A DNA stretch of 33,309 bases, from positions 1 through 33,309 of the forward strand of contig JAIQCW010000173.1 in NCBI GenBank assembly GCA_020283715.1. Reading direction: 5' to 3'. This document shows, in pieces, positions 56-32,846 of this stretch (the stretch's first letter is position 1; each line of letters starts with the position of its first letter). Under the pieces are notes generated by a model, which did not search any database, was not told the origin of the DNA, and was given only the letters and a program-made list of their open reading frames with translations. Both the position numbers and the translations under genes were made by a program. Origin of the DNA: Cytauxzoon felis (Eukaryota; Apicomplexa; Aconoidasida; Piroplasmida; Theileriidae).

Positions 56-156
56 CTCCACTTGAGGTCGTCTTGCAGACAGCTTCTCTATTTACTTCCC
101 CCTCCGCTTCCCTGAGATCAGCTACGGGCATTCCACTTCCACTTGAGGTTACATCT
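56..156 (-). repeat. Interspersed repeat cluster R1 (arm-B-arm)
   Basis: Module B read on the minus strand, bounded by two copies of the 12-nt arm. It follows the donor of the antigen-like exon 178-728. It is inverted relative to cluster R2 on the other side of that exon. Confidence 0.85.
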
Positions 157-177
157 ACTAGGATAACCTGTATCAGG

Positions 178-728
178 ATCACCAAGTGCTCCTTTAATTC
201 CATTGAGTTTGGTTACAAAATTAGCGTTAATAGGGCTCTCACCTGGATTTATTTCATCATAATTTTCAGTTCCACTAGCTACATTTGTCCATGTATTAGG
301 AGGAGTCTTCAGACGTTTATACCATTTATCACTAGGACTTTTACTACCATTTGGAGATAAACATATCAAGAGAGGTTTGTGTAATTCAGGTTTACTCTCG
401 TTATTCAGTGGAAAATATACGTATACACCTCCATTGGTATTAAATGTAATACTTTCAATATCATTTTGACGAATACCTTCCGTTATGTGACCATGTACTG
501 TTATTTGATTTATCTTGAAAGTAGAGCCAGTAGAAGCACGATGTTTATAACCTTTATATTGAGCAGGATTACCAGCTTCTTGAGCTTGTTCTACTGCTGT
601 AACAGTAATTGTACCACCCGAAGGATTTGCTGGGTATGGACTACCATTAGTGTCAGTTTTTTCAAGTTTAATTTCATATTTAACTTTGAGAGTATCAAGT
701 TCATTTTTAAGTGTAGTAAGATCAGTAC
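178..728 (-). pseudogene. Antigen-like domain exon nested in cyclophilin intron (cassette 1)
   Basis: A 551-nt open exon with acceptor CCGTAG at 729-734 and donor CAG|GTTATC at 177. The translation is Thr/Gly/Pro-rich and beta-strand-like. It contains a YKGYKHR...GSTFKI motif also present in the antigen-like ORF at 14719-15411 (TGYKHSRS...NTFKIEKV), so the two are paralogous. A motif KLKYEIKLEK-like stretch opens the exon and a Trp-Tyr-Lys segment lies near its end. There is no signal peptide and no start codon, so this is an internal exon. Its entry and exit phases are both 1, whereas the host cyclophilin intron is phase 0, so splicing it into the host would shift the frame. It resembles piroplasm secreted antigen families (FAINT/DUF529 or T. 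equi tandem families); the family assignment is an inference. I call it a pseudogene because no complete gene surrounds it. Confidence 0.55.
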
Positions 729-733
729 CTACG

Positions 734-822
734 GTGGACTACCCGCAGCTGATCTCAGGGAAGCGGAGGGGGAAGTAAATAGGAGAGGCACCACGCCTAG
801 TGGAATGACCTCAAGTGGAACA
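734..822 (+). repeat. Interspersed repeat cluster R2 (B-E-arm)
   Basis: Modules B and E on the plus strand, ending with the ACCTCAAGTGGA arm. Read in the host (minus) sense, the pyrimidine-rich complement of B lies directly upstream of the acceptor of the antigen-like exon 178-728. Confidence 0.85.
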
Positions 823-836
823 GTTGTCGGTATAAC

Positions 837-1317
837 TTGGATGTTAGCGTACCTTTGATCATAGATGGTGCAGGATTTATTGCCATGGAAGAGATCTCCT
901 CCGATGATGGCTTTATTTTTGATAATGTTTGAGATTCTTGTGTTGTAGTATCCGATTGTTTTATCTTCGATCTTATATCCATTACACATTTGTAGAAAGT
1001 TTTCTGTTGTTAGGGGTAAAAGACGTCCATATAGACCTATTAATATTCTACCTAGGTATTTACCATCGACTGAAAAATCCATATATACATAATCTGTGAT
1101 TGCATTTCTATGTATACCTTCCAGCCTTAAGGCTGGGTTACGATTATAAAAAGGATAAACTACTAGACCACCTGTAATTAGCGTCTAAAATTACAGAATA
1201 AAATTACATATCATTAATACTTACACATATCATTTTATTACGACGAGATGTACTGTTGAATTTTTTAATCATAAATTTCAAGACATGGTACGGTAGAAGT
1301 ATCCTATTGACTGACAT
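837..1317 (-). CDS. Cyclophilin-type peptidyl-prolyl isomerase, 5' part only
   Basis: Two exons are visible. Exon 1 is 1317-1225 (31 residues, basic, with a possible N-terminal targeting or membrane segment). Exon 2 is 1184-837 (116 residues). The splice joins at a GTAAGT donor and a TTTTAG acceptor, both phase 0. The cyclophilin signature is clear: VYMDFSVDGKYLGRILIGLY, then PLTTENFLQMCNGY, then the GGDLFHGN loop. The C-terminal half of the fold (the region around the catalytic FxxxQFF/W loop) is absent and must lie left of position 1, because exon 2 ends at a CAA|GTTATA donor. The sequence is divergent, with the usual YHR motif changed to an NTRISNII-like segment, so catalytic activity is uncertain. 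The intron downstream carries repeats R2 and R1 and an antigen-like exon. Alternative: an already truncated cyclophilin fused to the antigen exon. Confidence 0.8.
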
Positions 1318-2084: not shown

Positions 2085-2093
2085 TTTGTAAGA

Positions 2094-2540: not shown

Positions 2541-2613
2541 AGAAGGGATCTTAATTTATTACAATGAAATTAATTATATATATATATATATATATTTATT
2601 CAAATTATTAAAA

Positions 2614-5284
2614 TTAATTATCATCCCACCAATTATAATGATGTCGAATCTCACCACCATCGTCATACATCCTATACCCATGCATACCAAAACAATCACG
2701 CTGAGCTTGAATCAAATTATGCCTAATCTATAACAATGTTATATATAAAATAATGATATAATAATACACATTCTAAAATATACCAACGAAGGCAGTCCAT
2801 CCGAGGTCCAATCCAACTTTCTTAGTCATGCAATCAGCTCCCCACCTGAGGTTACAACCACTGTTCCACTCGGCGTGGAGCCTCTCCACCTGAGGTCCGT
2901 CCTGCCGTCAGCTCTTCTAATTACCTATCTCTAAAGAGTAAAGCCACTCCCGGAGATCGTGGCGGAGGTATAGTGATTGGACCTCAAGTGGAAGTGTAAT
3001 ACCTGGAAGCGATCTACGGGAGCTGGAAGGGGAAGTAAATAAAGAAGCTGTCTGCAAGACGACCTCAGGTGGAGAGCTGTCTGCAAGACGAAGAAGAGGT
3101 GGTATAAGATGAGGTGGATTGGACTTCGAGTGGATAGTTTGTATATAATGGGTATATATGTACTAACATTACCGTGTAATGAGAGTAGGTATTGTATTGA
3201 GTTATTGATGACGGGTATGGGTATGTTATGATTAAGGGCGGTATGAATGATATTTTTCCATATGTTTAGTGATGAATTGATATCATTATTGAATCTGAAT
3301 GTATATAAAGAATGATTAAAATATATAAAATACTTCATATAATTTATAATTAATTTATCATTATCTTCATATAAATCTACAATTTCTTCAAGTAATTTAC
3401 AACTTATTATACTATTTCCTATAATTAATTCTATTAAATATATCAATCATCTATCAACATACTCGACCAAATTGTACATAAATTCTTTATATCAAGCCCC
3501 CATTTATACTTATTCGATACCTCCTTAATCAAATGTATACCCTGAGTAAATATAACAATCATACATGATCTATATACACACTTCAAATCATCTAAATATA
3601 TAATAAATTAATACTCTTATACATCATCAACTCTCCACCCAATGTCCAATCCAACTATCGTTCCACTCGCCGTGGAGGCCTTCTCTATTTACTTCCCCCT
3701 CCGCTTCCCTGAGATCAGCTACGGGACCACTTGAGGTCTCCACCTGAGGTCCAATCCATACATTCTCACTGCCACGATCTCTGGGAGTGGCTCTACTCTT
3801 TAGAGATAGGTAATTGGAAGAGCTGTCTGCAAGACCAACGGTGGTTGTAACCTCAGGTGGAGCTGCAGGACCAAGAGAGGTTGGACCGTTGGTAGAGGTA
3901 ACCTCAGATGAACCGTCGAGTAGAGGTGAGTAGTAGAGAGTTAAAGATATGTTAACATACTTGTATTACATTTATCATTAGTATTATTATTATTGATAAT
4001 GATTGGTGGTAATGATAGATTACTAATGGATCTAAGATCGACAGCGATTGAGATGGATGGTATAGGTATATTAAGATTATAAGATTCTTTAACTGTCCAA
4101 ATACCAGTTCCATTATTACCACTAGATCCTATAATTCTATCAATTATATAACCTTTATCATCTTTTTCTTTAATATTTTACATGTAATCTCAATTAAATA
4201 TGATAAAAATTCTATATTCCATTCATTAAATATTAATGAAATATCATTATTATCTAATTTATTTATAGATGATAATATATTATAACACTCTGATAATAAC
4301 TGCATTATCGAATACTCTATACCATTGTGTACCATCTTCACATAATGACCACTCGAACCAATACCAATATAAAATGACTATTATATTATATATATATATA
4401 TATCACCCACCTGAGGTATAATCCGGCTTCTCTTCGTCTTGCAGACAGCTCTTCTATTTACTTCCCCTTCCAGCTCCCGTGGATCGCTTCCAGGTATTCC
4501 ACTTCCACTTGAGGTCCAATCATCATCAACCTCTCACCGCCACGATCTCCGGGAGTGGCTTTACTCTTTAGAGATAGATAATTAGAAGAGCTGACGGCAG
4601 GATGTACCTCAGGTGGAGTAGTAATATATATATATTATGTATATACGTACATGTTCTTGTTTGAGTATTGGTTCGATTGATTTATATATATCTTTATTAC
4701 CGCTGAACATGAGACATGGTATATTTCTGGCACCTTTTTGTCCACCACTGATGCCCATACCACAAAAACTATAATAATGTATTGATATTGTATATATAGA
4801 CGTACTTTATATTGAATTTCTCACAACGTTTAATTCGTCTATTTGTATTTTCATACCATTCATTACCACAATCAATAAGTATATCATTAGGATCTAATAA
4901 TACAATGAATTGATCAAGCATTGAATCAACAGCTTTACCAGCCTATAATATAATTTATATATTTATAAAAAAGAAATTCCATTTAAAAATAATAACATAC
5001 TGTTATTAACATTAATATCTTCCTTGGTATTTTTATACTTTTAACCTATAAAAAATATATAATTGAATATAAATTATTATACATACAAATTGACATAAAT
5101 CTGTAAAATATTTTATATTATTTAATTTATTATCATTAAATTCATTATAAAGATTAATCTTAAATGATTCTATCTCATTCTCATTTATAGACCATACAGA
5201 TACATTAAAATCTCGCGATAATAAATTCATAGTATATGCTCCACCCATTACACCCAAACCTACTATACCTATATCAGACTCCAT
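2614..5284 (-). CDS. PGD: 6-phosphogluconate dehydrogenase, decarboxylating (8 exons, one frameshift)
   Basis: Converts 6-phosphogluconate to ribulose 5-phosphate with NADP+ in the pentose phosphate pathway (cytosol). Exons: 5284-5087, 5045-5001, 4942-4806, 4768-4651, 4377-3961, 3591-3463, 3418-3168, 2727-2614. Landmarks are the Rossmann GLGVMG at the N-terminus, LLDPNDILIDCGNEWY, the substrate-site motif CGMGISGGQKGAR, VKMVHNGIEYS with the catalytic His-Asn-Gly-Ile-Glu-Tyr, and the C-terminal LIQAQRDCFGMHGY tail. If one lost base is allowed, the exons sum to about 469 residues, the usual length. Exon 5 has a -1 frameshift in a run of five T's (plus strand 4163-4167), just after ITCKILKK; all exon phases agree only if this is one missing base. 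Introns 4, 5 and 7 carry repeats R5, R4 and R3; the other introns are about 37-60 nt. Confidence 0.93.
2797..3133. repeat. Interspersed repeat cluster R3, in 6PGDH intron 7
   Basis: Modules D and C on the plus strand plus several arms. The outer ends form an imperfect inverted repeat: CCATCCGAGGTCCAATCC at the left and the complement of CCACTCGAAGTCCAATCC at the right. Confidence 0.85.
3635..3912. repeat. Interspersed repeat cluster R4, in 6PGDH intron 5
   Basis: Contains E, B (minus), D (minus) and several arms. Module orientation is host-sense here, opposite to R3 in the same gene. Confidence 0.85.
4407..4618. repeat. Interspersed repeat cluster R5, in 6PGDH intron 4
   Basis: The most compact cluster: arm, C (minus), D (minus), arm. 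The outer arms are a perfect 11-nt inverted repeat (CCACCTGAGGT and ACCTCAGGTGG). The intron opens with the donor GTACGT 32 nt before the cluster in host sense. Confidence 0.88.
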
Positions 5285-5460: not shown

Positions 5461-5910
5461 TCCACTCGAGGTTACAATCACTACCTCCTATAGTACCACC
5501 TTCATTCGTCTTGCAGACAGCTATCCACTCGAGGTCCAATCCAACTCTTCTTCCACTCGACGTTCCACCTGAGGTCTTCCACTAGGCGTGGTGCCTCTTC
5601 TAATTAGCTCCCCTTCCAGCTCCCATAGATCGCTTCCAGGTAGTCCACTTGAGGTTACAACTTTGTCTTCGTCTTGCAGACAGCTTCTCTATTTACCTCC
5701 CCCTCCGCTTCCCTGAGATCAGCTACGGGTAGTCCACTTGAGGTTACATCCAACACATCCTTAGTACCATCTTCCATCATTCCCATGATGGATGATTCAT
5801 TACAACCTTCAACATCGCCACGATCTCCGGGAGTGGCAATACTCTTTAGAGATAGGTAAATAGAGAAGCTGTCTGCAAGACCAAGAGAGTTGGATTGTAC
5901 TTCGAGTGGA
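5461..5910. repeat. Interspersed repeat cluster R6, intergenic (ARP4 3' flank)
   Basis: Contains E, C, B, a G-like block and D, with many arms. It ends only a few bases beyond the ARP4 stop codon, between ARP4 and the 6PGDH start. It is one of only two clusters clearly outside introns, so it may overlap the ARP4 3' UTR or polyadenylation region. Confidence 0.85.
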
Positions 5911-5915
5911 GTTAA

Positions 5916-8218: not shown

Positions 8219-10516
8219 TCACTTCTTCTTAGGCTTAATAGTCTTTGATGTATCCTTCTTTCTAAAGCGATCTGGACCTTCTTCAGCCCTTATTCTCTTT
8301 TGATACTGCTCCTCTCTATACTTTAATAATTTAGCACGTAATCTTTCCAATCGCTCCTCATGTAATTTCAATGCAGCTTGATACTCCTCAGGATATAAAA
8401 TAGGTATCCAATCCTCACCATATGCACATGAAAAATCCTCCATCTTATCAACATCTATACCACGTTTCCTCATCAATTCACGGTTACGCTCATCACGACG
8501 TTTCCTATAAAAATGTTAATCAAATCCATTCGCCATTCCACCTGAGGTTACAACATTGTCCTCCACTAGGCGTCTCACTCGAGGTCCAATACAACTCTCA
8601 TCCACTCGCCGTGGTGGCTTCTTCCAATTACCTATCTCTAAAGAGTAGAGCCACTCCCGGAGATCGTGGCGATGATGGAGTAGTGGATTGGACCTCGAGT
8701 GGAGAACCTGGAAGCGATCCACGGGAGCTGGAAGGGGAAGTAAATAAGGAAGCTGTCTGCAAGACAAAAGAACGAGGAGTGGAGTAGAGAGTAGGATTGG
8801 ACTTCGAGTGGAGATCAAATCGGTAGATAAGGCTTATCACGTTATAGTTTATAGAATGAGTATTTTATCATACCTGTATGCGGCAAGTTGTTTTTCATAC
8901 ATATCACGCATTGTGAGTCCGGCATCTCGTACAATGAATGGTTCATTATATTTAATGAGTACTCTACGTTTTTTCATTGTACCCCAATATAATAAACGTA
9001 ATAGACGCATTGATTCTATATTATATTTACGACTCTTATGCATGTTAGCCATTAAATCCATAAAACGACGTAATAAATCTATGTCATTCTTTATATCAAT
9101 ACGCCTAAATGAAATAAATATACTCAAAAGTATCATATAAAAGTGTTAACCATAGAAGGTCGTCCACCCGAGGTCCAATCCAACTCTCTTCGTCTTGCAG
9201 ACAGCTCTTCCAATTACCCATCTCTAAAGAGTAGAGCCACTCCCGGAGATCGTGGCGGAAGTGGAAGATGAGGTGTATGGTACATGACCTCAAGTGGAAC
9301 CCGTAGCTGATCTCAGGGAAGCGGAGGGGGAAATAAATGGAAGAGCTGTCTGCAAGACGATGAAAGAACCAATAGGGGACAGATGGAATGTTCATCGGTA
9401 AATGTATTCTAACTTCAGCAAACCTGGCATATTTCCTTAATAATCTGCATGCGGTTGCGAGATCTTCTTTATCAACGGCATCTCTGAAATTTTGTGTTGC
9501 TATTTTGACGTGTTCTTCTGTGCATCTACGTGGTCTTGATAGGAATGGACATATACGATCAATATCGAGTTTCTATATTGGAATTTTGAAGTTTATTAAT
9601 GATGAAATTATTAAAGCGTTGAGATGTACATGTTTAAACTTACATTTCGTATCTTCCTTCTATATGCCAACTTTTTAAATGGTTTCAGCCTCTGGTAATT
9701 CCATAGACATGTGATTAATTTCTTATGCTTAGCCCTTAATAAACGATGATATAACTCTCTAGCAAGTTTTAATCTTGACTTTTTATCAATATTTTTAAAA
9801 TGTGTAATAAGTTTTCTATAATTTGACATGTCATGTACATGTATAGGCTCTTCTACTGTAGCTTTAGGCTCAATATAATCATTAGAATAATCTGGTACAT
9901 CTGGTGGTATTTCACCTGGTTTTAACCATACATATAAAGTACGTGATTCTAAGTCCTGCTGATTTACGTGTTGTATTATGTATCTAGACACTAAGAATTT
10001 AATCGTAGAATCTAAATTCTCTGGTTGTGGATACTCATACTTTAATCTAGAATTCATCAAATGATGAAAATCATTTAGAAATAATTGACAATCACGCTGA
10101 TTCAATAAGCCCTTGTTATCCATCAATAGACGTCGTATAGAATGAAAATCATCCATCTCCAAAAAATATCTTAACTGCTTGATTAATACACGACGATCAT
10201 AAATTTTACCGTATATATTATCAAGATTATAAATATTCACGCCATTAAAATCAGTTAGACGTGTATTATAATTTATAACCGATGGGTCATGACTACGTAA
10301 CAGATTCTCATAATCCAACGCCAATCTCTTCTTTACTACACTATCTGGTAATATCTCTATACTCATTTTAGGCCTTGATAATATATACCACGACTTCCTA
10401 GTACCATCTGCGATTGTTGTTGGTGATAACCAACATTCAATATATACCACGCTTACATTTTCACTAATCACTACGACCAAGATACCATAAAATACACTAA
10501 GTAATGAACTAGGCAT
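8219..10516 (-). CDS. Unrecognised 4-exon gene, basic helical protein
   Basis: Exons: 10516-9644, 9572-9424, 9104-8874, 8504-8219. All phases agree (0, 2, 2), giving about 512 residues. I do not recognise a family. The first ~30 residues are hydrophobic (LLSVFYGILVVVI), possibly a signal anchor or mitochondrial lead. An upstream in-frame segment from an ATG at 10624, joined through a GTGTAG intron, could provide a different N-terminus. The remainder is rich in Arg/Lys/Leu helices. The C-terminus is charged (KYREEQYQKRIRAEEGPDR, then a Lys-rich end). It looks like a conserved piroplasm structural or RNA-associated protein; a mitoribosomal role is only a guess. Exon 2 could instead extend past the GTTTGC donor, which would break phase with exon 3. 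Introns 2 and 3 carry repeats R8 and R7. Confidence 0.7.
8537..8812. repeat. Interspersed repeat cluster R7, in intron 3 of the gene at 8219-10516
   Basis: E, D and C on the plus strand (antisense to the host), with arms at both ends. The host-5' end reads CCACTCGAAGTCC. Confidence 0.85.
9163..9362. repeat. Interspersed repeat cluster R8, in intron 2 of the gene at 8219-10516
   Basis: Arm, D, arm, B on the plus strand, antisense to the host. It begins CCACCCGAGGTCCAATCC and ends at the CTGTCTGCAAGACGA tail of B without a clear closing arm. Confidence 0.82.
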
Positions 10517-13250: not shown

Positions 13251-13285
13251 GGGATGTTGTGTGGCATTGTGAATATCGACCAACT

Positions 13286-17633: not shown

Positions 17634-18104
17634 CTTGTCCTGCAGACAGCTCTCCACCTGAGGTTACAACCAGTGTTCCACTCGCCGTGGTGGCCTCTTC
17701 TAATTACCTATCTCTAAAGAGTATAGCCACTCCCAGAGATCGTGGCATTGTTAACCCGGAAGAACGTAAATGTGTCAACCCCTAAGAACAGGAATTCTAC
17801 CCGGAAGAACAGAAATCTATTCCACCCGAGTTCAATTTAACTCTGTTCCTCTTGCAGACAGCTCTCCACCTGAGATCCTTCCACTAGGCGTGGTGCCTTC
17901 TCTATTTACCTCCCCTCGGATTCCCGTAGATCATCCTCGGTATTCCACTTGAGGTTACATCACTACACTTTCGCCACGATCTCTGGGAGTGGCTATGCTC
18001 TTTAGAGATGAATAAATAGATGAAGCCACCACGGCGAGTGGAAGATAGTGATTGGACATCGAGTGGGATGTCTAGTGGAATACAAGGATCTAACCTCGGT
18101 GGAG
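17634..18104. repeat. Interspersed repeat cluster R11, intergenic (eL13 3' flank)
   Basis: Contains E, D (plus), F units, E, a C-like module, D (minus) and E, with arms. The two D copies are inverted to each other. It lies between the eL13 3' end and the small Lys-rich gene and is one of two clearly intergenic clusters. Confidence 0.85.
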
Positions 18105-20290: not shown

Positions 20291-21303
20291 TTAATCTACT
20301 GTAATTGGATGATAATTTTTGAATATCTCTGGTGTACTTTCATCATCAGCAATATCAACATCATGTATACCAGTAGAATCGATAATTTTAGCCTTGAAAT
20401 TCGATTGTGATAATAAAAAACGATTTTTAATCTCATGTCTACATTTTTTAAGTAATGTTATAGCATCCTCTATAGTTAAATTATCTTTATATTCCCGATC
20501 CAATAAACCCCTAACCAAATTACCACCATAACCATGAGCACCCCTATCCAAACTAGTAGATGACGCCAAATAATCTATCCAATACAATCCCGGACCATCC
20601 TATAGAAATTAATATATAAAAAATATATTAACCGAATGTCAACCATCTGAAGTCCAATCCAACTCTCTTCCACTTCCACCTTTCGTCATCCTGCTGTCAG
20701 CACTCCACCTGGGGTCGGTCTTGCAGACAGCTTCTCTATTTAGTTGTCCCTCCGCTTCCCTGAGATCAGCTACGGGTTCCACTTGAGGTCCAATCACTAA
20801 CCTCTCTACTGCCACGATCTCTGGGAGTGGCTCTACTCTTTAGAGATAGGTAATTGGAAGAGAGCTCCACGCCTAGTGGAACAGTGGTTGTAACCTCGAG
20901 TGGATAGCTGTCTGCAAGACGACTTACGGTGGAGGTAACCTCAGGTGGATTGGACTTCGGGTATATATAAACGTACATTATCATATCCTGCGACTAGTAG
21001 ATCTACTTGATATGGGCTTTGTCTTAGATAGGTGGCGAGTTCATGTCTGATGAAATGTACCATTGATTTAGTAGACATTGGAAATGAGTTTTTATAACGA
21101 TGGAAATGTATTGATTTTCTAATGTATTCACCGAATTGTAGACGATCACCGATAGGTCCGGCTAATATGATTAATTTTGTATCATCGATTTTTAATATTT
21201 TACCATCATCATCATTTTTTAATGTTATGATTGAGTATTTTTCATACATATCTGCTGCAATTGCTACAAAATCTTTACCTTTAATACCGATTAGTGTATC
21301 CAT
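20291..21303 (-). CDS. PSMB2: Proteasome subunit beta type-2 (beta4)
   Basis: Exons 21303-20977 and 20599-20291 (phase 0), 211 residues. Beta4 is a non-catalytic inner-ring subunit of the 20S proteasome. Family features are MDTLIGIKGKDFVAIAAD at the N-terminus (family: MEYLIGIQGPDYVLVASD), GDRLQFGEYIRKSIHF, SPYQVDLLVAGYD, then after the splice YWIDYLA, AHGYGG and the IIDSTGIHDVD tail. There is no Thr-1 cleavage site, as expected for beta4. The intron (donor GTACGT) contains repeat R12. It is divergent from SRP72, with a 250-nt shared upstream region. Confidence 0.95.
20643..20962. repeat. Interspersed repeat cluster R12, in PSMB2 intron
   Basis: Contains B (minus), D (minus), E and several arms, host-sense. 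The outer ends are an inverted repeat (CTGAAGTCCAATCCA at the left and the complement of CCGAAGTCCAATCCA at the right). Both outer arms carry GAAGT instead of the internal GAGGT. Confidence 0.87.
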
Positions 21304-21553: not shown

Positions 21554-24500
21554 ATGTCAATGAATAATAATAAGAATGATTCTATATCATTACAAAATGG
21601 TTTAAATCAATTACAGTTATTATTAGATGAGTCTAGATATAATGAAGCTAGTAAATTATGTCAGAAATGTAAGTATATAATTGATTGTAAATTTAATATA
21701 TATATTTATTTATTAATTTTAGATATAAAAATATGGCCAGAAGAAAATATTTTATATAATGTTAAAATATATTCAGAAATGCAGTCATCACAATGGCGTT
21801 GTTGCCTACAAACTATAGGATGGTTACATGGATATAATAATCATCCTATAGTATGTGATCAAAAGAAGAAGAGAAAGAAAAGGAAGAGATTGAAAGAAGA
21901 AAGAGATGATGAAGGAAGTTATTCATTAGATGAAGATGATGTATTAAAAAATAAATTATTAAAAGCTACAAAATTACATTTAGATAATAATTCTTGTTTA
22001 TGGTTTCATTTTGAACAAAGTTATTGTTATTATAAATTAGGGAAATATAATTTAGGCCTACAAGCACTGTCTTTATGTAATAAAGGATTACCACCTATAG
22101 ATTTAATAAAAAATCCATTAAAAATTAATGAAAATGATATCTCATATAATAATACACTTGATATAGAAATTAAATCCAATAATATTAAATCATTACTTTT
22201 ATATGCACAATTATGCCTTAAATTAGGATATTATAATAAAGCTAAACATATATATACATCTATCAAAGTTAAAGATAATATCGAAATCTTAGCATATATT
22301 AATAAAATTAGTATCGATATCGCACTCGCATCCGAATCATATGATAAACATATACTCAATAACCTCAATCATGATATCGATACACATTTCAATAATAAAA
22401 ATCATCATGAACCTTATGAACTCTATTTCAATTTCGCATGCGCTGCATTACTCACCAACAATCTCGAATATACACAATACTATCTAGATATCGCAGCAGG
22501 TTTGATATACACTAACACATTATATGGATTCTCATCCACCCCACCTGAAGTCTTTCCACTCGCCGTGGTGGCCTTCTCTATTTACCTCCCCTCGGATTCC
22601 CATAGATCATCCTCGGTATTTTGTCTTCCCGGAAGAACGTAGATGTTCAACCCCTAAGAACAGAGAATTCTACCCGGAGGAACAAGAATGTCAACCCGGA
22701 AGAACAAACCTCGGATATAGTAGATGTAACCTCGAGTGGAAAACCCGTAGCTGATCTCAGGGAAGCGGAGGGGGAAGTAAATAGAAGAGCTGTCTGCAAG
22801 ACGAAGACATAGTTGTGGATTGGACCTCAGGTGGAGATCTTAACTTAGAGACTGGTCCTTCGGTGGATAACACCTTAGTGTCTATAGTTTTTCTCATTTC
22901 ATGTGTATATATGATTATATAGAGTTATTGGAGAAGGAGTTGAGGACTGAAGTTGGTACGGATGATTATAATGATCAGTTGGAGTATTCGAATATATTAG
23001 CATTTCGTTCATATTTGCATGGTGAAAGGGGTAATATTGAATTGGCAAGGAAGATAAATAATGAATTACTCGATAGTTTTATTAATTCTGATGCTGATCA
23101 AGCTACTATACTTGTAGCACTTAATAATCAATTAGTATTAAAGTATGTTTTATTAATAATGATTAAATTAGCCCCATATTAATCATCTGGGGATTATTAA
23201 ATTAATTATATAAATTATTAATAGTGAATTTAATAAAGATCAAGTATTGAATATAGTACAAAAAATAGAACAATTAATGAAGAAAGAACAAGTATTAAGG
23301 AAATTTACAAATACTGATGTATATTTTTGTAATCATTTCTATAACATCCACATTTCAGATCAAACTCGTACACCAAAATTGTATCCTATCACTACTCAAT
23401 ACTAATAATATCAAAGATACACAAAAATATCTCGAACACTTTAAAAGACAATTACATAATGACGATCATTTATATCTCAAAGCCGCATTACATGTACGTT
23501 TCACAAACAAACCTCTATTGAATTATTTACAATCCACCCGAGGTTACAACCTTGTCTTCCACTCGCCGTGGTGGCCTTCTATTTACCTATCTCTAAAGAG
23601 TATAGCCACTCCCAGAGATCGTGACAGAGGTGTGGTTGTGGGGATTTGGGGTCAAAAAAAGTTATGTGGCCTATTTAGTATTATGTGGTAAGTGGGGAAT
23701 TTTATCCCTATAACCCGATAATATCATATATTAATTTTGCCACGATCTCCGGGAGTGGCTCTACCGTTTACGGGGAGGTAAATAAGGAAGCTGTCTGCAA
23801 GACGAAGAGAGGTGGGAGTGGACCTCAGGTGGAACGCCTAGTGGAAGAGGTGAAGGTAGTGATTGGACCTCAAGTGGACTATAAAGTGAAACTGATTATA
23901 TATATACATCAACATTACAGTCAACTGAGGGGAAGTTCATGAAGAGTATATCATTATTGCGTCAATGTATGAATCCTCGTGTTGTAAATACATTAGTGAG
24001 GTTATTGATGTATCAAGGGAAGTATAAGGATGCATTATCTTTACTTGAGGATAGTTTTAATATGTTTAATGAGAATGGTGATGATTATATTAAACTTTAT
24101 TATACACATCAAACTAAAATTTATATACAATTAAATATGCCAAATGAAGTAAACAATACATTATTAAAGTTATTACAATCAAATATCAAGGTATATTTTA
24201 CATAATTATTTAATTAATATTTCCCCATATCTTATTAATTATCCCAATATTATGGGGAAAATTTTTTCATTTTATGGGGTGTTTATTCTTATAAAATTAT
24301 AAATATATACAGTTGTCTGGTGGTGATGATGCTATAAGATTAGGATGTGGATATATGGAATCGAATGGTATGTATAATGAATGTCTAGAGATTTACAAAA
24401 CATTATACGAACGTGACCCCAATGATAATCTATCATTATGCGGTATCTCATACAATAGCTCATTCCTCAAAGAATGTGATCAATTTACACTCACAAGAGA

Positions 24501-25389
24501 ATTCACAGACCCATTAACCAGAGAAATTCGCTTCATCGGTACGTTTCAAACAATCGAACCTAACTTCACCTGAAGTCCAATCCACCTCGTCATCCCACTT
24601 GCCGTTCCACCTGAGGTTACAACCACCGTTGATCTTGCAGACAGCTCATTTAATTACCTATCTCTAAAGAGTATAGCCACTCCCGGAGATCGTGGTGAAG
24701 GTAGTGATGGATTATCAATCATGGGAATGATGGAAGATGGTGCTAAGGATGTGTGGATGTAACCTCAAGTGGAACCCGTAGCTGATCTCAGGGAAGCGAA
24801 GGGACAACTAAATAAGAAGGCCACCACGGCGAGTGGAATGGCCTCAAGTGGAACGGCAAGTGGGATGACGAGGTGGATTGTACTTCAGGTGTAGTTTATA
24901 ACATCTGTTCATTGTATTCTTTATGGTGTTAAATTCTTTACAAATGATGATATTATAGATCCGGAGGAATTGGAGGCGGCGTCTAGGGTGAAATTTCAAT
25001 TGGAGCAGCAGAATGTGTAGGTTTATTTGATGTGATTATATTGATGTTGTTAGTGATGTGAAGATTAAAAAAAGGCATAGGAAGAGGAGGAATAAGAGAC
25101 CGAAGATGCCTATTACATCACCACCTGATCCTGAGAGATGGTTACATAAATATGAGAGGTATGTATTAATGTTGATGATATATTCATATATTATTAGGGT
25201 TGCTTATAAAAAAATCGCAAAGAAGAGAAGAGATGTTAATAAAGGTTTAACTCAAGGATCTAGTTCTACTACATCTACAAGTTCACCATCTACTGGTACT
25301 ATTAGTGCTAACTCATCTAATATCAAGAGGTATGTTGGACATCAGAATGACATCATGACATAATCAGGGGTAAAAGGAAGAAGCGTTGA
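21554..25389 (+). CDS. SRP72: Signal recognition particle subunit SRP72 (10 exons)
   Basis: SRP72 binds SRP68 and 7SL RNA in the particle that targets ribosomes to the ER. Exons: 21554-22499, 22923-23142, 23225-23318, 23359-23493, 23921-24190, 24313-24538, 24959-25016, 25054-25158, 25198-25329, 25368-25389; all phases agree, 735 residues. Exons 1-6 encode helical TPR-like pairs (for example YNLGLQALSLC, YNKAKHIYTSI, YKDALSLLEDSF). The C-terminus has the Lys-rich stretch then PPDPERWLHKYER, matching the SRP72 RNA-binding signature PDPERWLP, followed by GLTQGSS and a Ser/Thr-rich tail. The final 22-nt exon gives a basic KRGKRKKR end; without that splice the ORF runs on ten codons to a stop at 25363. 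Introns 1, 4 and 6 carry R13, R14 and R15; the other introns are 37-122 nt. Confidence 0.92.
22541..22870. repeat. Interspersed repeat cluster R13, in SRP72 intron 1
   Basis: Contains E, a C-like antisense block, F units, B and arms. The 5' outer arm reads CCACCTGAAGT. Beyond the last arm a further CTTAGAGACTGGTCC-type sequence leads to the acceptor. Confidence 0.85.
23533..23879. repeat. Interspersed repeat cluster R14, in SRP72 intron 4
   Basis: E, D (plus), about 110 nt of non-repeat sequence, D (minus), a C-type tail, E and arms. The two D modules are inverted and could form a stem enclosing the unique loop. Confidence 0.85.
24567..24891. repeat. Interspersed repeat cluster R15, in SRP72 intron 6, with 50-bp inverted ends
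   Basis: The first 50 nt (24567-24616) and the reverse complement of the last 50 nt (24842-24891) agree at 48 of 50 positions. The inner part holds D, a G-like block, B and E. This is the clearest terminal-inverted-repeat structure of the family. Confidence 0.9.
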
Positions 25390-25573: not shown

Positions 25574-28500
25574 ATGGATAGTTCAGAATCGCAACCTATT
25601 AAAACTGTATGTTAAACATATTTAACATTTTAAATCTTCTATATGATTAGGTACCAATAACTAACTTCTTCAAACCCAAGTCCAAAATCAAGTCTGAAGT
25701 TTCTTTAGCAGTTGATACAGATGGCAAGGGTAATATTAATGATAAAGGAAATAGAGATTTAGAATTGTGTAAATTGGATACTGTACATATAGATCCAGAG
25801 AATCATCATAATGTATGTTGTTCATTACATCTACACATTACTTTATATACAATTTAGGATAACAGTACACCGAAATTAGATGATGTATTATCATATACAC
25901 TAGAGAGTACCCCTAATGAATTTGTACATTGCAATGATGATGTAGATGTTGTTGGAAAAGAAACAACATCAAAATTAACAAACAATGATAATAATAATAC
26001 ATCAATTAATAATTCATTAGACTATAATAAATTACCAGAAACTAAATGTGATTTGAAAAAAGTACATACCAGAATCATCAATGATGATGAAGATGATGAT
26101 ATTATCATCAAAAAACGTATCATCAAATTAGATCAATACTTACCAACAACAACAACCAATCTATTCGATGAGGATAGTCCACTCGAGGTCCAATCTAACT
26201 CACCTGGTCCTGTAGACAGCTCTCCACCTGAGGTCCAATCCAACTCTCCTTCTCTTGCAGAGAGCTCTTCTAATTACCTATCCCTAAAGGGTGATGCCAC
26301 TCCCGGAGATCGTGGCGATGATAATGAAGAGGAACTGAAATTGTCTACCCGGAAGAACGTAGATGTTCAACCCCTAAGAACAGGAAATCTACCCGGAGGA
26401 ACAGAAAATGTCAACCCGGAAGAACAGGAAGGTAGTGATGGATCATCCATCATGGGAATGATGGAAGATGGTGCTAAGGATGTGTTGGATGTAACCTCAG
26501 GTGGAAGTGGAATACCTGGAAGCGATCTACGGGAGCTGGAAGGGGAAGTAAATAGAGAAGGCCACCACGGCGAGTGGAAGAAAGGTGGAGACGGTAGTAA
26601 TGTAGTATCAGATGATGAGATATTACCTAGGATAACATTATTGAGTGATGTGAATGAGAATATAAAAAGGGAACGTAATAAGTTATTGAGTGTTGATGAG
26701 GATGGTATAGATATTGTGAATAGATTATCTAGTATAGATGAGTATATATATGATAATGATAAGGTTATAGATTATAATAATGAATTAACGGTTGGTAAGA
26801 AATCAAAGATGGATATAAAAAAATTTGATGATGATGATGATGAATTAAAATATTATTTATCATTAAATGTTTGTAAGATATCACATGGATTTAAATCATA
26901 TATAAAAGTATATTATCGTTATAAAGATTTATTTAAATTTCCACCATGGATAGAACCAAAAAATATTAAAGATGATATGAATAGATTAATAAATGATAAT
27001 GATTATAATCCTAGTAAAATATGGATACCATCATTAGATCATAAATGGTCTATAATATATAAAAGTTGTCATTATACAGATTGTATGAAACAATGGTGGA
27101 ATTTTAAAAAAGATTATTTTGATTCATTATTATTTTTTAAAATGGGGAAATTTTATGAATTATTTTATCATGATGCATGTATAATACAAGAATTATGTCC
27201 ATTAAGATGGATGGGTAATGAAACAAAACCTCATGTAGGATTTCCAGAAAAAAGTATACATATATATGCAACTATATGTATAGATGCTGGTTATCGTATT
27301 ATAGTAATAGAACAAACAGAAACACCATATGAATTAGAATTACGTAATAAATTAAATAATATTAATGATAAAACTATTAAACGTGAAATATGTGAAATTA
27401 TTACACCTGGTACTATAACTAGACCTGAAATGTTAGGTAAACAATCAAGACCATTAATAATATTATCATTATTTAATAATATTTTATTTATTATTTCTAT
27501 TGATGTATCTATAAGTAAATTAAAATATGGTTATTTATTATTTAATAATAATTTTAATAATCTTAAAACTATACTCATCTATCTATGCCCTGCTGAAGTT
27601 GTATTAGATAATATACTCAATAATCATACAATCATTATCAATACCATCAAATCATTACCTTTCCCACCAGAAATCACTTTCCATCATACCAACTCAAAAT
27701 CTATTATTCTCTATAATAGATTCATAAAATTCTTTAAACATACATATAATGATAATAATAATAATAGTCATGCAACCTCGCGTTCTCCTGAGGTTGGTCC
27801 TGCAGACAGCTCTCCACCTGAGGTCCAATCCAACTCTCCTTCTCTTGCAGAGAGCTCTTCCAATTACCTATCTCTAAAGAGTAATACCACTCCCGGAGAT
27901 CGTGGTGAAGGTAGTGAGAATGTAACCTCAAGTGGAAAACCCGAGAACGATCTACGGGAGTTTGAGGGGGAAGTAAATAAGAAGGCCACCACGGCGAGTG
28001 GAATGAATAATAGTACTGGACCTCAAGTGGAACCCGTAGCTGATCTCAGGGAAGCGAAGGGTGATGTAAATAGAGAAAGCTGTCTGCAAGACGAAGGAGA
28101 GGGTGGAGGTGGAAATGTAACCTCAAGTGGAGAAAATGGGGCAACAGAAACTTATGGGGATAAAAAACCTCATAATAATGATAATAAACCCCATAAATCT
28201 ACTAGTGTTATTCAACCCGGAGGAACAGAGAATGTCTACCCGGAAGAACAGGAAGTTAGTAATTTAACCTCAAGTGGAAAACCCGTAGCTGATTTCAGGG
28301 AAGCGAAGGGACAAGTAAATAAGAAGGCCACCACGGCGAGTGGAAAGGAAGGTGGAGTTGAAGATAGTGATATAACTTCTAGTGATCATCAGATAACGAT
28401 AGAGCTGTATAGAGGTGTGATAGATTTATGTGAATCATATATGTGTAGTATATTATTGGATAGATTATTGGAGTATTGTAGTATAGAGTGTTTGAGTATG

Positions 28501-31500
28501 GAGAGTTATGATGTAATGAAATTGGATGGTTATAGTATAATGTATTTGGAATTATTTTATGATAAGAATGGTAATATAATGAATTCATTATTTAATTATA
28601 TAAATAGAACAATGACATCATTTGGTGAGAGATTATTAAAAGAATGGTTAATGAAACCATTAATTGATGTGGAGAAGATTAAAGAAAGGAATGATGTAAT
28701 AGAATATTTATTAAATAATTATAGTATAGTAGAAGGTATACAATATGAATTAAATGATTATCCAGATATAGAAAGAGGTTTAGGTAAAATAATAAATAAT
28801 ATTACAAATAATAATAAAAAGAAAGCTATATATTTTGATGATGATATATATAATAAATTATATGAATTATATAATTTAATAAAAAAATTTGAAAAATTAG
28901 AAGAGATTTTAATGAAATTCTTCAATGAATGTGATGGATGTAATATAAAATTATTAAATGAATTAAAATTAAATTATATAAAATGTAATAATGATTGTAA
29001 TTATATTAATAATATGTTAATATTAATAGATAATAAAAAATGTAAATCAAATAATAATATATGGAATAAATCTATAGATATTAATAATAATATAAATAAT
29101 ATTATAAATAAATTAAATATTATATTAAATAATATACGTAATATTTGTAAATCTGCTATTTATATTAATTGTAAATATCGTTATGAAATAGAATTAAATG
29201 AATTAGATTTTAAATTATATAAAAATTATTTTAATAATAATTATCAAATTACATCTACTAAAAATAATTTTATTAGAATTAGAAATAATGATATTATTAA
29301 TTTATTAGAACAATTAGAATATTATGAATTTAAACTTAAAGAAAGTGAAGAAGAATTTTATCAATTTATTATTAGAATATTATATGAAAAAAGTTTTAAA
29401 TTTTGTAAAGTTGTTTATACTACCTCCATTATCGATTGCTTATTATCTATTACTAATGTTATTAAAAATTCACCCAATATTATGACCAAACCCATACTAC
29501 ATTATAGAAGGGAGGATGGAAGTTCCGAACGGAGTGAGGATGATGATGATGATGGAGGTTCCGAACGGAGTGAGGAGGTGGATGATGATGATGATGATGA
29601 TAATCATCAGAAGGAGGAGGAGGAAGAGGAGGATAATCTGAAGCAGAAGGAGGATAATAATCACCATCCTCATCAACACCCTCAACATCCTCATCACCAC
29701 CCTCAACGCCACCACCACCAACATCCTCACCACCCTCAACAAAGTATACTTAAATTATTAAATTGTACATATCCACTATTCAGTCAACAGAAAAATTTTA
29801 TACCAAATGATATAATAATAAATAAAAATTCATCTACAATAATAATTACAGGACCAAATATGGGTGGTAAATCTACACTACTCAGACAAGTAGCAATTAA
29901 TGTTATACTAGCACAAATAGGATCTTACGTTAATGCATCTTACTGCGAACTCTGTCCTTTCGATGCAATCTATACCAGATTAGGCGCCACAGATAATATC
30001 GTAGCCGGAAAAAGCACCTTCCTCAATGAACTACTCGATATCTCCAATCTACTGATACACGTATGTTGAATGTATTCCACTTGAAGTTACAACCCCTGTT
30101 CCACTAGGCGTTCCACCTGAGGTCTTTCCACCTCCTCTTCCACTCGGCGTGGAGCCTCTTCCAATTACCTATCCCTAAAGGGTGATGCCACTCCCGGAGA
30201 TCGTGGCCGAAGGAGTGAAACGACTGAGATGTTGTCCATCCAACGGATTATACTTCTACATTATTGTACAACTCTTCTTTCCACTCGGCTCCACCGTTGG
30301 TCTTGCAGACAGCTCTTCCATTTACCCATCTCTAAAGAGTAGAGCCACTCCCGGAGATCGTGGCGGAGATGACGAGCGAAGTATGAGCGAGACGTTGTCC
30401 ATCCCACGGATTATACTACATCTCCACCGAGATTACCTCCACCTTCTCTTCATCCTGCCGTCAGCTCTTCTCCACCTGAGGTTAGTCCTGCCGTCAGCTC
30501 TTCCAATTACCTCCCCGTAAACGGTATAGCCACTCCCGGAGATCGTGGCGATGATGGAAGATGGTTCTAAGGATGTGTTGGATGTAACCTCAAGTGGAGA
30601 ACCCGTAGCTGATCTCAGGGAAGCGGAGGGGGAGGTAAATGGAGAAGCTGTCTGCAAGACGACATCAGGTGGAGAGGCCACCACGGCGAGTGGCAACGAG
30701 AGGTTGAAGTGGAATTAGGAATAGTACTAGACCTCAAGTGGAGAAGCTGTCTGCAAGACCAAGAGAGGTGGATTGGACCTCAGGTGGAGATCACTTTCGG
30801 GTATCGACTTTCTTTCCAATTCTAGTGTTTATATGAGATATTACTATAATGAGATTACCAAGTGGATAGTTAAGAGGAAGGGGACCGAAGAAAATTCTTA
30901 TGTATAATTGTCTACCCGGAAGAACAGACTCCCACTTGAGGTCACAGCCTTGTCTTCCACTCGCCTCCACCTGATGTCGTCTTGCAGACAGCTCTTCCAT
31001 TTACCCATCTCTAAAGAGTATAGCCACTCCCAGAGATCGTGGCGAAGAGAAGGTAGTGAAGAGGGTAGTGATGGATCATTGAAGTTAGTGATGGATCATC
31101 CATCATGGGAATGATGGAAGATGGTGCTAAGGATGTGTTGGATGTAACCTCAAGTGGACTACCCGCAGCTGATCTCAGGGAAGCGGAGGGGGAGGTAAAT
31201 AGAAGAGGCTCCACGCCGAGTGGAAGATGAGGCGGGAGATGAAGAGTTAGATTGTAACCTCAGGTGGAGAGTCGGATTATACTTCATATAATGATATATA
31301 GGGTACGGAGAATTCGTTGGCGATAATAGATGAGTTGGGTCGTGGAACATCGACATATGATGGTACGGCGATAGCGTTGGCTACGATAGAGAAGATATCT
31401 GAGATTGGTTGTTGTTGTATATTTACTACACATTTTCGTGATGTATGTAAGATAGCATCTAGATTACCGAATGTAGTAATGTATCATATGTTAGCAAGAT

Positions 31501-31739
31501 TAGATGAGGATAAACAGGTTGTAGAATTTTTATATAAGTTGGTAGAGGGTACATGTCCAGATTCATATGGATTATATGTAGCAAAATTAGCTGGTATACC
31601 AGAACGAGTAATAGAATGTGCTAAAATGGCAAGTTTAAGATTTATGAATAAAAATATGTTAAATGATATAATTAAAGCATATAAGCACAATAATATAAAT
31701 GCCTTACAAGATTTATATAATAATTCATTATATAAATGA
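25574..31739 (+). CDS. MSH6: DNA mismatch repair protein MSH6
   Basis: MSH6 pairs with MSH2 (MutS-alpha) to recognise mismatches. Exons: 25574-25606, 25651-25812, 25858-30060, 31302-31739. The N-terminus has a PCNA-binding-type motif ([11 protein letters not shown]). The mismatch domain shows [16 protein letters not shown] (the Phe-x-Glu wedge in KFYELF), [14 protein letters not shown] and ICEIITPGT. The ATPase has the Walker [14 protein letters not shown] (~residue 1397), then [19 protein letters not shown], and after the last splice the Walker [15 protein letters not shown] and FTTHF. As translated the product is 1,611 residues, above the usual 1,200-1,350. Repeats R16 (~173-306) and R17 (~708-895) stay in frame; they are either exonised or removed as introns without standard boundaries. 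Before Walker A there is a poly-Asp/Glu/His insert (~1283-1362). Intron 3 (1.24 kb) holds R18 and R19. Confidence 0.93.
26178..26579 (+). repeat. Interspersed repeat cluster R16, in frame inside MSH6 ORF
   Basis: Arms, D, F units, G, C and E, all host-sense, with no stop codon in the MSH6 frame over about 400 nt. Candidate internal splice signals exist (GAG|GTCC in arms, TCTTGCAG|A before D). None of the strong GTATGT or GTACGT donors seen in other introns flanks it. Confidence 0.88.
27785..28345 (+). repeat. Interspersed repeat cluster R17, in frame inside MSH6 ORF
   Basis: D, a C-like module, E, B, another arm, F units, B again and E, all host-sense and open in the MSH6 frame for about 560 nt. 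It separates the mismatch/connector region from the lever domain in the MSH6 translation. Confidence 0.88.
30076..30789 (+). repeat. Interspersed repeat cluster R18, in MSH6 intron 3 (5' part)
   Basis: The longest cluster: four D-type modules (about 30165, 30325, 30505 and variants), B, E and many arms. It starts 16 nt after the GTATGT donor, with outer arm CCACTTGAAGT. Confidence 0.87.
30826..30901 (+). pseudogene. Antigen-like exon fragment between R18 and R19
   Basis: A 76-nt open stretch after a TTCCAATTCTAG acceptor, ending at a GTATAA donor. The translation ([19 protein letters not shown]) resembles the YEVYYYVKSPKGALKV and YYIYYY...W segments of the antigen-like ORFs in the EngB-like intron. 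Module F (CTACCCGGAAGAAC) follows the donor, as it does at the end of ORF block c. It is too short for a firm family call. Confidence 0.35.
30911..31270 (+). repeat. Interspersed repeat cluster R19, in MSH6 intron 3 (3' part)
   Basis: F start, E-like, D, G, B, E and closing arm, ending about 30 nt before the MSH6 exon 4 acceptor. Confidence 0.87.
31736..31739 (+). other. ATGA stop-start overlap, MSH6 / tRNA endonuclease
   Basis: The MSH6 stop TGA (31737-31739) overlaps the ATG (31736-31738) of the next gene on the same strand. Confidence 0.7.
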
Positions 31740-32846
31740 CTATAATTATTAATTTAATAAATAATGATCCTTTATATTCTATAATTAATTATTTTAATAA
31801 TTTAAATTATATTATTAAATCCGGATTACAATACGGATCTGATCTTGTCATCTATCCACCTACCGGTCCCAATATCACACATTCAATATATACACTCTCT
31901 ATCATTAATAATAATACCAACTGGAGGTAAGATGAAAAAAAATCATTTAAATTTATTCAAATTTTAGAGATATCATTTCATTCTATCGTGTCGCCAATCA
32001 AACATCTAAAATACCAATCATCGCCATACCCACCAATGTAAGTTTATACTTCACACACCATTGCCATCCATTCAAATTAAATTAAATCCATATAATCTCT
32101 ACTCTTTACCATATATATAGTAATTCAACCTTCCATCCATCCGAAGACCGTTAGGTCTCCACCTGAAGTTACATCTACCAACAGTCCAACCTCTCTTCGT
32201 CCTGCCGTCAGCTCTCCACTTGAGGTTACAGCCAGTGTTCCACTCGCCGTGGTGGCTTTCTCATTTATTTATCTCTAAAGAGTAGAGCCACTCCCGGAGA
32301 TCGTGGCGGCTCTTCTATTTACTTCCCCCTTCGCTTCCCTGAGATCAGCTGCGGGTTCCACTTGAGGTCCAGTACTGCACTTCATTCCACTAACTTCATT
32401 TTTACCTCCATATTTTGAAGGAAAATCTGAATTTCTGAGGAAACTCATGAAGATTGAGGAATGACGATTGGATGAATTATACATCTCAATACTTCATTGA
32501 AGAGGTCTTTGATGATTGTATTGAGTTTAATAAACCTCACTTAATTCCAATTCATATTCATTGTGATATCCTTACTTAAGTGAATATCGTCACTTTAGTC
32601 GTATCTCGTCAAGATTAGGTTTATAACCTCAAGTGGAACCCGAAGCTGATCTCAGGGAAGCGGAGGGGGAAGTAATTAAAGGAGCTGTCTGCAAGACAAG
32701 GAAAGTTGGAGAAATAGTGATGTAACCTCAGTTATAATTATATATATTGATAGATGTAAATATTATAGGTTGGAATTCGTTTATATGTGATAGATCGTTA
32801 TATTGGAGATGTCGAACGAGGGTTTAAAGAATGTGGTACATCGTAG
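31736..32846 (+). CDS. tRNA-splicing endonuclease catalytic subunit (Sen2/Sen34 type)
   Basis: Three exons, 31736-31926, 31968-32037 and 32769-32846 (phases 2 and 0), give 112 residues, about the size of the catalytic domain alone. The fold signature is clear: SGLQYGSDLVIYP, then THSIYTLSII, then WRDIISFYRVANQTSKIPIIA. The catalytic triad candidates are Tyr (in QYG or VIYP), His (THS) and Lys (TSK), so this is a catalytic Sen2- or Sen34-like subunit, not Sen15 or Sen54. I cannot tell which of the two. It cuts introns from pre-tRNAs. The ATG overlaps the MSH6 stop as ATGA. The last exon is less certain; it reads GIRLYVIDRYIGD and ends 38 nt inside the UTP11 reading frame. Intron 2 carries R20 and R21. 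Confidence 0.78.
32137..32372. repeat. Interspersed repeat cluster R20, in tRNA endonuclease intron 2
   Basis: Arms (outer CCATCCGAAGACC and CCACCTGAAGT), E, D and B (minus). The B copy faces the B copy of R21. Confidence 0.85.
32373..32625. other. Non-repeat passenger between R20 and R21
   Basis: About 250 nt of unique sequence flanked by inverted B modules inside an intron. A plus-strand open stretch (FLPPYFEGKSEFLRKLMKIEE, then stop, near 32395-32465) looks coding-like but is not recognised. Confidence 0.4.
32626..32732 (+). repeat. Interspersed repeat cluster R21, in tRNA endonuclease intron 2
   Basis: Arm, B and a final TGTAACCTCA half arm. The B module is inverted relative to that in R20. 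Confidence 0.85.
32809..32846 (+). other. 38-nt overlap of tRNA endonuclease 3' end and UTP11 5' end
   Basis: The tRNA endonuclease frame runs to TAG 32844-32846, while UTP11 starts at ATG 32809 in another frame on the same strand. It depends on the third tRNA endonuclease exon being correct. Confidence 0.5.

What the first reader, a model, noticed from the sequence alone, without database searches (positions are those of the whole stretch)
56..32732. A modular interspersed repeat family occupying about 19% of the window
Twenty-one clusters (85-714 nt, about 6.3 kb together) are mosaics of the same six or so modules in shuffled order and orientation, punctuated by a 12-nt arm (ACCTCAAGTGGA / TCCACTTGAGGT, with variants). 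The modules are far more GC-rich than their AT-rich surroundings and remarkably well conserved between clusters. No transposase or reverse transcriptase is visible, so the family is non-autonomous or spreads by another route. I do not know of a described element with these modules.
Basis: seen in the sequence. Interest (0 to 1): 0.92.

Follow-up and report, generated by a model that had tools for sequence, protein, structure and literature searches.

The report
Foldback repeats inserted in piroplasm genes
A small parasite genome is peppered with thousands of copies of a GC-rich, hairpin-shaped mosaic repeat that looks mobile; some copies sit inside protein-coding exons, in the one orientation and reading frame that lets the protein be read through.

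Summary
The repeat family is real and genome-wide: 3,278 exact copies of the 12-nt arm in 8.62 Mb (reversed-pattern control 0), 18.7% of the window, 12.6% of a 232-kb sample. Modules follow a strict plan of inverted halves around a variable core: 115 of 123 clusters have all leftward modules before all rightward ones (shuffles: mean 12.8, maximum 24). Clusters fold as hairpins (mean z -4.1; controls +0.1). Outer flanks are unrelated between copies (2 of 204 match another). Cores include a 252-bp element J and coding segments. At least 19 clusters lie inside long ORFs, two in one MSH6 exon, where six piroplasm orthologues lack them. All 19 share one orientation and head-module frame; 48 comparable clusters outside such ORFs show random phase (19/16/13). 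Translation is likely, but no RNA or protein was seen. I found no target-site duplication, no match to three transposase/recombinase families searched, and no reverse transcriptase except telomerase. Best reading: a non-autonomous foldback-type family, behaving in exons like Rickettsia palindromic elements. Not filed as a foldback transposon: the duplication test failed and no transposase is known. Species unidentified; Theileria equi/haneyi not supported.

The parts
57..819 (.). Half-clusters 57-149 (<A <D <n <C <A) and 745-819 (C> n> H> A>) bracketing a coding segment (ORF 118-738, minus); lies after a splice donor (GT at 852-851, minus strand, set by eye) of a cyclophilin-type isomerase gene; the gene's remainder is beyond the contig start, so the intron is inferred
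   Evidence: tokens; degenerate inner arm at 727; PF00160, 1.2e-8, first 59 of 159 profile positions
2841..3134 (.). Cluster, B-half left, E-half right
3662..3861 (.). Cluster, C-half left, B-half right
4406..4617 (.). Cluster, E-half left, B-half right
5461..5910 (.). Cluster with D, H, E and C units on the left, M spacer, B-half right
8537..8812 (.). Cluster, B-half left, E-half right
   Evidence: folds at -100 kcal/mol
9163..9358 (.). Cluster, B-half left, C-half right
14600..16360 (.). Half-clusters 14600-14733 (<D <n <E and K units) and 16281-16360 (C> n> G> A>) bracketing about 1.5 kb with three open frames (14719-15465, 15455-15928, 15924-16271, minus); lies in an intron 16433-14519 (minus, ends set by eye) of a GTPase gene
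   Evidence: MMR_HSR1 1.1e-10 on exon pieces that I put together by eye
17637..18042 (.). Compound cluster: B-half + K units, then D, A, H, F and A units and a second B-half
20689..20949 (.). Cluster, C-half left, B-half right
22555..22835 (.). Cluster with F head, K units and C-half, in the region of a gene that I read as SRP72-like
   Evidence: PF17004 7.9e-4, below its cut-off
23533..23878 (.). Rare cluster with two B heads facing each other around an AT-rich core
24606..24852 (.). Cluster, B-half left, M spacer, C-half right; the 30 nt beyond the arms on the two sides are inverted repeats of each other but for one base
26178..26578 (+). Cluster INSIDE an exon of MSH6, in frame (0 stops in the gene frame over 26160-26620; 9 and 17 in the other two plus frames)
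27797..28344 (+). Second cluster inside the same MSH6 exon, in frame (0 stops over 27760-28390; 11 and 32 in the other two plus frames)
30076..31268 (.). Two adjacent clusters (about 30076-30788 and 30931-31268) in an intron of MSH6 (30061-31301)
32158..32697 (.). J-type cluster: left half (with a B head as well as a C head), J core (match 32385-32621, minus), right half
25574..31739 (+). Host gene MSH6 (DNA mismatch repair), introns 25607-25650, 25813-25857, 30061-31301 (set by eye)

Best explanation
The clusters are copies of a non-autonomous foldback-type mobile element family. SHOWN: the usual copy is built of two inverted halves; a half is an arm A, a small tail (D, d, G or H), a short n or b unit and a head (C or E with an inner arm; B or F without), around a variable core (short spacer, M, K repeats, 252-bp J, about 370-bp Q, or a coding segment). 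SHOWN: tails are exchanged freely between halves while order and orientation are kept. INFERRED: the inverted arms and hairpins are what a replicating or inserting machinery recognises; copies insert without a recognisable duplication; mosaic copies arise by recombination between dispersed copies. INFERRED from frame statistics: one frame of the canonical copy is free of stops, so an insertion into an exon survives when it lands in that orientation and frame and is then translated as an extra 70-215 residues; copies elsewhere are free of this limit. Some copies hold coding segments as core, two of them now in or beside introns of housekeeping genes in the window.
For: Plan: 115 of 123 clusters monotone, 1,000 shuffles mean 12.8 and maximum 24. 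Exchange: left and right tail types equal in 21 of 71 clusters, 20.0 expected. Hairpins: 30 clusters, mean z -4.1; 30 controls, +0.1. Dispersal: genome-wide arm, J and peptide matches; outer ends often read TCCAC(C/T)TGAGGT; 2 of 204 outer flanks match a flank of another cluster, so copies did not arrive with duplicated segments. Insertion: two MSH6 exon copies absent from all 6 piroplasm orthologues aligned. Frame: 19 of 19 exonic copies with the same orientation, head frame and B-to-X phase; 48 other clusters 19/16/13; orientation next to coding-like flanks outside such ORFs 10 same, 13 opposite. Coding cores beside exons of a cyclophilin-type gene and a GTPase gene; 6 of 7 fetched short-frame copies of the window's domain have facing modules on both sides.
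Against: No target-site duplication: 28 clusters with arms at both ends, mean match 1.93 against 1.97 for shuffled pairs, none of 5 or more. No empty allele or second strain could be examined. No transposase: PF00589, PF10551 and PF00665 0 matches; other transposase families, P-element included, not searched. Coding cores do not form one clade in a tree of 15 domains, so one capture followed by spread is not shown. No third-codon-position excess worth the name in exonic module copies, so no selection on the peptide itself is visible. 7 of 22 clusters with coding-like flanks on one strand on both sides are not open in frame.
Confidence: 0.58

Rival explanations
1. Selfish palindromic DNA spread without a transposase, by template switching at hairpins or repair synthesis, like GC clusters in AT-rich yeast mitochondrial DNA (analogy recalled, not from a call).
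For: No duplication and none of the three transposase/recombinase families searched. B-half and X-half share longer inverted identities within a cluster than between clusters (13.6 against 11.95; 1 of 2,000 permutations as high, n = 60). One cluster has nearly perfect 30-nt inverted flanks (24606-24852). J cores are 76.8% identical on average while modules of the same elements are 89.4%, as if arms were homogenised or constrained.
Against: Ends are often definite; J-type copies are largely full length with halves on both sides (most of the 40 scored), which suggests movement as units. The unsorted comparison of halves went the other way.
Confidence: 0.27
2. Introner-like or hairpin introns: the exonic copies are spliced out, so the protein never holds them.
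For: Strong hairpins; in Amoebophrya, introners with inverted repeats are spliced (PMC7789003, passages). Some copies do lie in introns (MSH6).
Against: Introns need no open frame, yet all 19 exonic copies keep frame and B-to-X phase while the 48 others do not. The MSH6 intron ends lie outside its clusters. The 19 were picked by openness, so the test is only partly independent.
Confidence: 0.07
3. The modules began as coding sequence of a host gene family and spread by exon duplication; copies outside exons are debris.
For: A consistent open frame exists; only 3 of 226 B, b, C and E copies outside the 19 exonic clusters have a stop in it.
Against: Phase between modules is random outside exons; the J and Q cores printed have no frame free of stops; no protein in the database scored against the MSH6 insert (429 candidates, none E <= 0.01); flanks are unrelated.
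Confidence: 0.05
4. Assembly or contamination artefact.
For: None found.
Against: Copies on many contigs with unrelated flanks.
Confidence: 0.01

Closest known systems
Foldback (FB-type) transposons: Tetris and Galileo of Drosophila; Tm1 of root-knot nematodes
   Same: Long, internally repetitive, modular inverted ends; variable middle; many rearranged copies; for Tetris no autonomous copy found (PMC4079207, PMC3573991, passages; Tm1 PMC3169594 seen in a search listing only).
   Different: Those passages report 7-10 bp target duplications (chimeric Galileo copies lack matching ones); none was detected here. In-frame exonic copies are not described in the passages I saw.
Rickettsia palindromic elements (RPE)
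   Same: Elements of about 150 bp, each with a frame for a conserved peptide, many inserted in frame in genes (PMC10969869, passages).
   Different: Bacterial. Here the host is an apicomplexan, copies are modular and mosaic, often larger, and also in introns; no sequence comparison to RPE was made.
Introner elements of Amoebophrya
   Same: Hairpin-forming repeats with inverted ends spreading in an alveolate genome (PMC7789003, passages).
   Different: Introners are introns; here exonic copies stay in frame, and the intron copies looked at sit inside larger introns.
LINE-like elements of T. equi and Babesia
   Same: Repeats of piroplasm genomes (PMC9141347, passages).
   Different: No reverse transcriptase but telomerase was found here; that study finds Apicomplexa devoid of Class II elements.

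Membership tests
Foldback (FB-type) transposon | Long modular, internally repetitive inverted ends | tested here: met
Foldback (FB-type) transposon | Middle domain variable in size and content | tested here: met
Foldback (FB-type) transposon | Target-site duplication of about 7-10 bp | tested here: not met
   28 clusters, none with a match of 5 or more; true ends are blurred in some copies
Foldback (FB-type) transposon | Related transposase in the genome (Mutator-type; P-type in Galileo) | tested here: not met
   PF10551 0 matches; P-type not tested; the six-frame search can miss genes split by introns
Foldback (FB-type) transposon | Mobility shown by presence/absence of single copies | tested here: inconclusive
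   MSH6 copies absent from 6 distant orthologues; no strain comparison
Rickettsia palindromic element | Inverted-repeat element inserted in frame in unrelated genes with a fixed frame | tested here: met
Rickettsia palindromic element | Rickettsia host | tested here: not met
   Host is a piroplasm
Rickettsia palindromic element | Sequence relation to known RPE | not tested
   No RPE sequence was compared; one 23-nt piece of module C had 0 exact matches in genome contigs
Introner element | Element ends coincide with splice sites | tested here: not met
   MSH6 intron 30061-31301 reaches beyond its clusters 30076-31268; the GTPase intron reaches beyond its cassette. Two introns only, ends set by eye
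LINE-like element | Reverse transcriptase | tested here: not met
SINE | tRNA-, 5S- or 7SL-derived head | tested here: not met
   no Rfam match in the window at gathering scores; ARAGORN not run

The most novel reading that the evidence does not exclude
A eukaryotic counterpart of Rickettsia palindromic elements that also shuffles domains: recombining foldback modules insert peptides into many proteins in frame and ferry coding segments of a lineage-specific protein family into introns of housekeeping genes, where they may act as new exons.
Probability: 0.15. Interest if true: 0.95.

Novelty: new variant of a known kind. Interest (0 to 1): 0.78.

Why it matters
Apicomplexa have been reported to lack Class II transposons (PMC9141347), yet this small genome gives, by extrapolation, roughly a tenth of its length to a foldback-like family. 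If the exonic copies are translated, a mobile-looking palindrome is adding peptides to many proteins of a eukaryote, MSH6 among them; that makes the old question whether mobile DNA can build protein sequence directly testable with RNA reads and mass spectra. The coding segments between facing arms suggest a route for moving protein domains.

Tried and rejected
Shuffled modules: rejected by the grammar. Rfam RNA families: none in the window. LINE: only telomerase. Tyrosine recombinase, Mutator and rve domains: 0 matches each. Viral or prokaryotic source: an exact 21-mer of B and 23-mer of C absent from viral contigs, the C piece also from genome contigs; exact matching only. Target duplication: none. 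Codon-position selection: none clear. Palindrome homogenisation: a first test mixed B and X halves and went the other way (within 13.7, between 15.8, n = 72); with halves matched by type a small excess appears. Segmental duplication: 2 of 204 outer flanks match another flank, one pair of 93 nt at 89% (38 core-side flanks left out; the uncorrected count was 53 of 242, mostly flanks shared by neighbouring clusters and J or Q cores). One capture of the coding core: the tree does not support it. J as a folded RNA: consensus energy only -6 kcal/mol, although below shuffled columns (z -7.1). A nested-insertion parse (small elements inserted into larger ones) fits several clusters by eye but was not tested. 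Naming the coding core: no database protein matched part of a 906-aa relative (8,000 candidates scored), and no Pfam family reached its cut-off; 'antigen' in my notes is a guess. Host proteins of 9 other exonic frames: one LCCL domain (6.9e-21), one sub-threshold Vps54_N, otherwise no Pfam family, so MSH6 is the only exonic case compared with orthologues. Species: Cytauxzoon felis has similar size and GC (9.1 Mb, 31.8%, PMC3748084, passages), but nothing was tested against it; mitochondrial cytochrome b gave no match and 18S no answer.
Full report
WHAT WAS CHECKED. The window is bases 1-33309 of contig C102 of an unnamed 8,623,106-base genome in 181 contigs. Besides the window I read 198,622 bases of five other contigs: C4 1-120000 (chosen from the arm listing) and stretches of C162, C158, C86 and C75 (chosen because one search listed strong matches to a window cluster there). 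The sample is therefore richer in the repeat than the genome: 104 exact arms in 231.9 kb, 0.45 per kb, against 0.38 in the genome. The sample's 12.6% coverage thus suggests about 10-11% of the genome; this is an extrapolation.

OBSERVATION. What is wrong is the word shuffled. The common forms are an X-half facing a B-half (40 with X left, 32 with B left, B standing for B or F). An X-half reads arm, tail, n, head C or E, inner arm; a B-half reads arm, tail, b, head B with no inner arm. Thirty-six further clusters are lone X-halves (18 left, 18 right), many of them pairing across a core; 15 are of other make-up. Leftward modules precede rightward ones in 115 of 123 clusters; 1,000 shuffles gave a mean of 12.8 and a maximum of 24 (K and M units not counted). 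Tail types on the two sides are independent (21 of 71 equal, 20.0 expected). So parts are exchanged but the plan is kept.

CORES. Between lone X-halves lies most often J, an AT-rich stretch of about 252 bp. I printed 16 such inter-half stretches; 12 of them are J, and the window holds a thirteenth. In the genome there were 402 first-look candidates, of which 40 were scored and all matched. J copies are 76.8% identical on average, the modules around them 89.4%. A second core Q of about 370 bp has a few copies (4 matches, one partial). Other cores are coding: window 150-726 and 14734-16280, and a 101-codon frame on C162. The window's 206-aa frame belongs to a domain family with 147 matches in the genome (150 of 230 candidates scored), also found in a 906-aa protein of C4. 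I fetched 8 of these loci: 7 with short open frames and one with a 429-aa frame. Of the 7, six have modules facing outward on both sides (four with a head on both sides; C103 lacks the left head, C30 the right); C62 has a half on the left and an ordinary cluster on the right; the eighth, C28, has a half on the right only. Cassette domains do not form one clade, so either several captures or much divergence must be assumed. Two cassettes of the window lie at introns of unrelated genes: a cyclophilin-type isomerase, of which only the first exon part is on the contig (PF00160, E 1.2e-8), and a GTPase (MMR_HSR1, E 1.1e-10, on pieces that I joined by eye).

EXONIC COPIES. The MSH6 gene spans 25574-31739. 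Its large exon is one open frame of 1,403 codons although two clusters lie in it. Six piroplasm orthologues (T. equi, two T. orientalis, B. divergens, B. duncani, B. caballi) align with gaps over most of the first cluster and nearly all of the second; the alignment is loose there because the linkers are variable. In the sample 33 of 84 clusters of 150 nt or more have a frame open throughout, 12 expected from first-order resampling, and 19 of these 84 lie in frames open for at least 240 nt on both sides. The 39 shorter clusters were not examined for this. In all 19 the coding strand reads B-half then X-half, heads B, C and E keep the same frame, and the B-to-X phase is the same; arms and tails occur in two frames. 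Among 48 other clusters with both heads the phase is 19/16/13, and their orientation next to coding-like flanks is 10 same, 13 opposite. Of 22 clusters with coding-like flanks on one strand on both sides, 15 are among the 19 and 7 are not open; the coding score was trained on long frames of the same sample with clusters masked. The 19 were selected for openness, so part of this follows from the selection: one frame of the canonical copy is free of stops. The random phases elsewhere show that insertion itself does not care for frame. This fits insertion at random followed by loss of damaging copies. Against a function of the peptide: changes in exonic modules are not concentrated at third positions (27/421, 16/414, 20/405 at positions 1, 2, 3, against 102/1701, 60/1668, 51/1632 elsewhere). 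In a genome-wide protein search with one exonic copy, 52 of the 150 open-frame lengths that I copied from the table are at least 300 aa, 42 at least 500 and 16 at least 1,000; the rows include the query's own locus and some frames twice; 150 of 3,873 first-look candidates were scored.

MOVEMENT. Signs of mobility are the dispersed copies, whose outer flanks are unrelated (2 of 204 match another flank), the MSH6 insertions and the coding cores at introns of housekeeping genes. Signs against a simple transposon are the missing duplication and missing transposases. Clusters fold as hairpins (mean z -4.1 for 30 clusters drawn at random from those of 150-420 nt; +0.1 for 30 controls). Complementarity between B-half and X-half is a little higher within than between clusters (13.6 against 11.95, 1 of 2,000 permutations, n = 60), so synthesis on a folded template may play a part; the same comparison without sorting halves by type went the other way. 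The machinery remains unknown.

COMPARISON. By structure it is nearest to foldback transposons (PMC4079207, PMC3573991; passages read); by its behaviour in exons it is nearest to Rickettsia palindromic elements (PMC10969869; passages). It fails the foldback test on target duplication and transposase, so I do not file it there. A survey of 64 apicomplexan genomes finds them devoid of Class II elements and reports LINE-like elements in T. equi (PMC9141347; passages). I found no description of this family in print in the listings of searches of an open-access library, which lacks most subscription journals. No database protein of suitable length matched the MSH6 insert (429 candidates).

SPECIES. 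A piroplasm, unidentified. MSH6 identity over aligned residues is 48% to T. equi, 45-46% to T. orientalis and 36-39% to three Babesia. The EMA search gave nothing but its controls were silent.

Noticed in passing
window 6961-7024 and 29515-29593: A second small repeat (TCCGAACGGAGTGAGGA) in coding sequence of two different genes, the actin-related gene and MSH6; 3 copies in the window and 1 in C86 of the sample, at up to 2 mismatches.
   Followed up: partly
L011:117-2834 (+) and 147 matches genome-wide: A large domain family in long frames with hydrophobic stretches (by eye) and no match in the protein database.
   Followed up: partly
window 23640-23730 and 28138-28195: AT-rich stretches with GGGGATAAAA-like sequence inside clusters that resemble the Q core by eye.
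   Followed up: no
window 32385-32621: The J core of this cluster lies just upstream of a UTP11-like gene starting near 32809 (product named by eye); whether J copies favour promoters was not tested.
   Followed up: no
L029 (C56:72193-75522): Telomerase reverse transcriptase (PF12009, 1.1e-25), the only reverse transcriptase locus found.
   Followed up: yes
P0004 and P0006 (MSH6 of B. divergens and B. caballi): Each has a short extra stretch that looks like a retained intron; the one in P0006 is at the position of the window's cluster-bearing MSH6 intron, which suggests that intron is old (by eye).
   Followed up: no
window 24606-24852: Nearly perfect 30-nt inverted repeats just outside the arms on both sides, as if the palindrome had been freshly copied.
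   Followed up: partly
C162 sample, right of cluster 34147 and left of cluster 46225: The only pair of outer flanks that match each other (93 nt, 89%, inverted); perhaps a further repeat.
   Followed up: no
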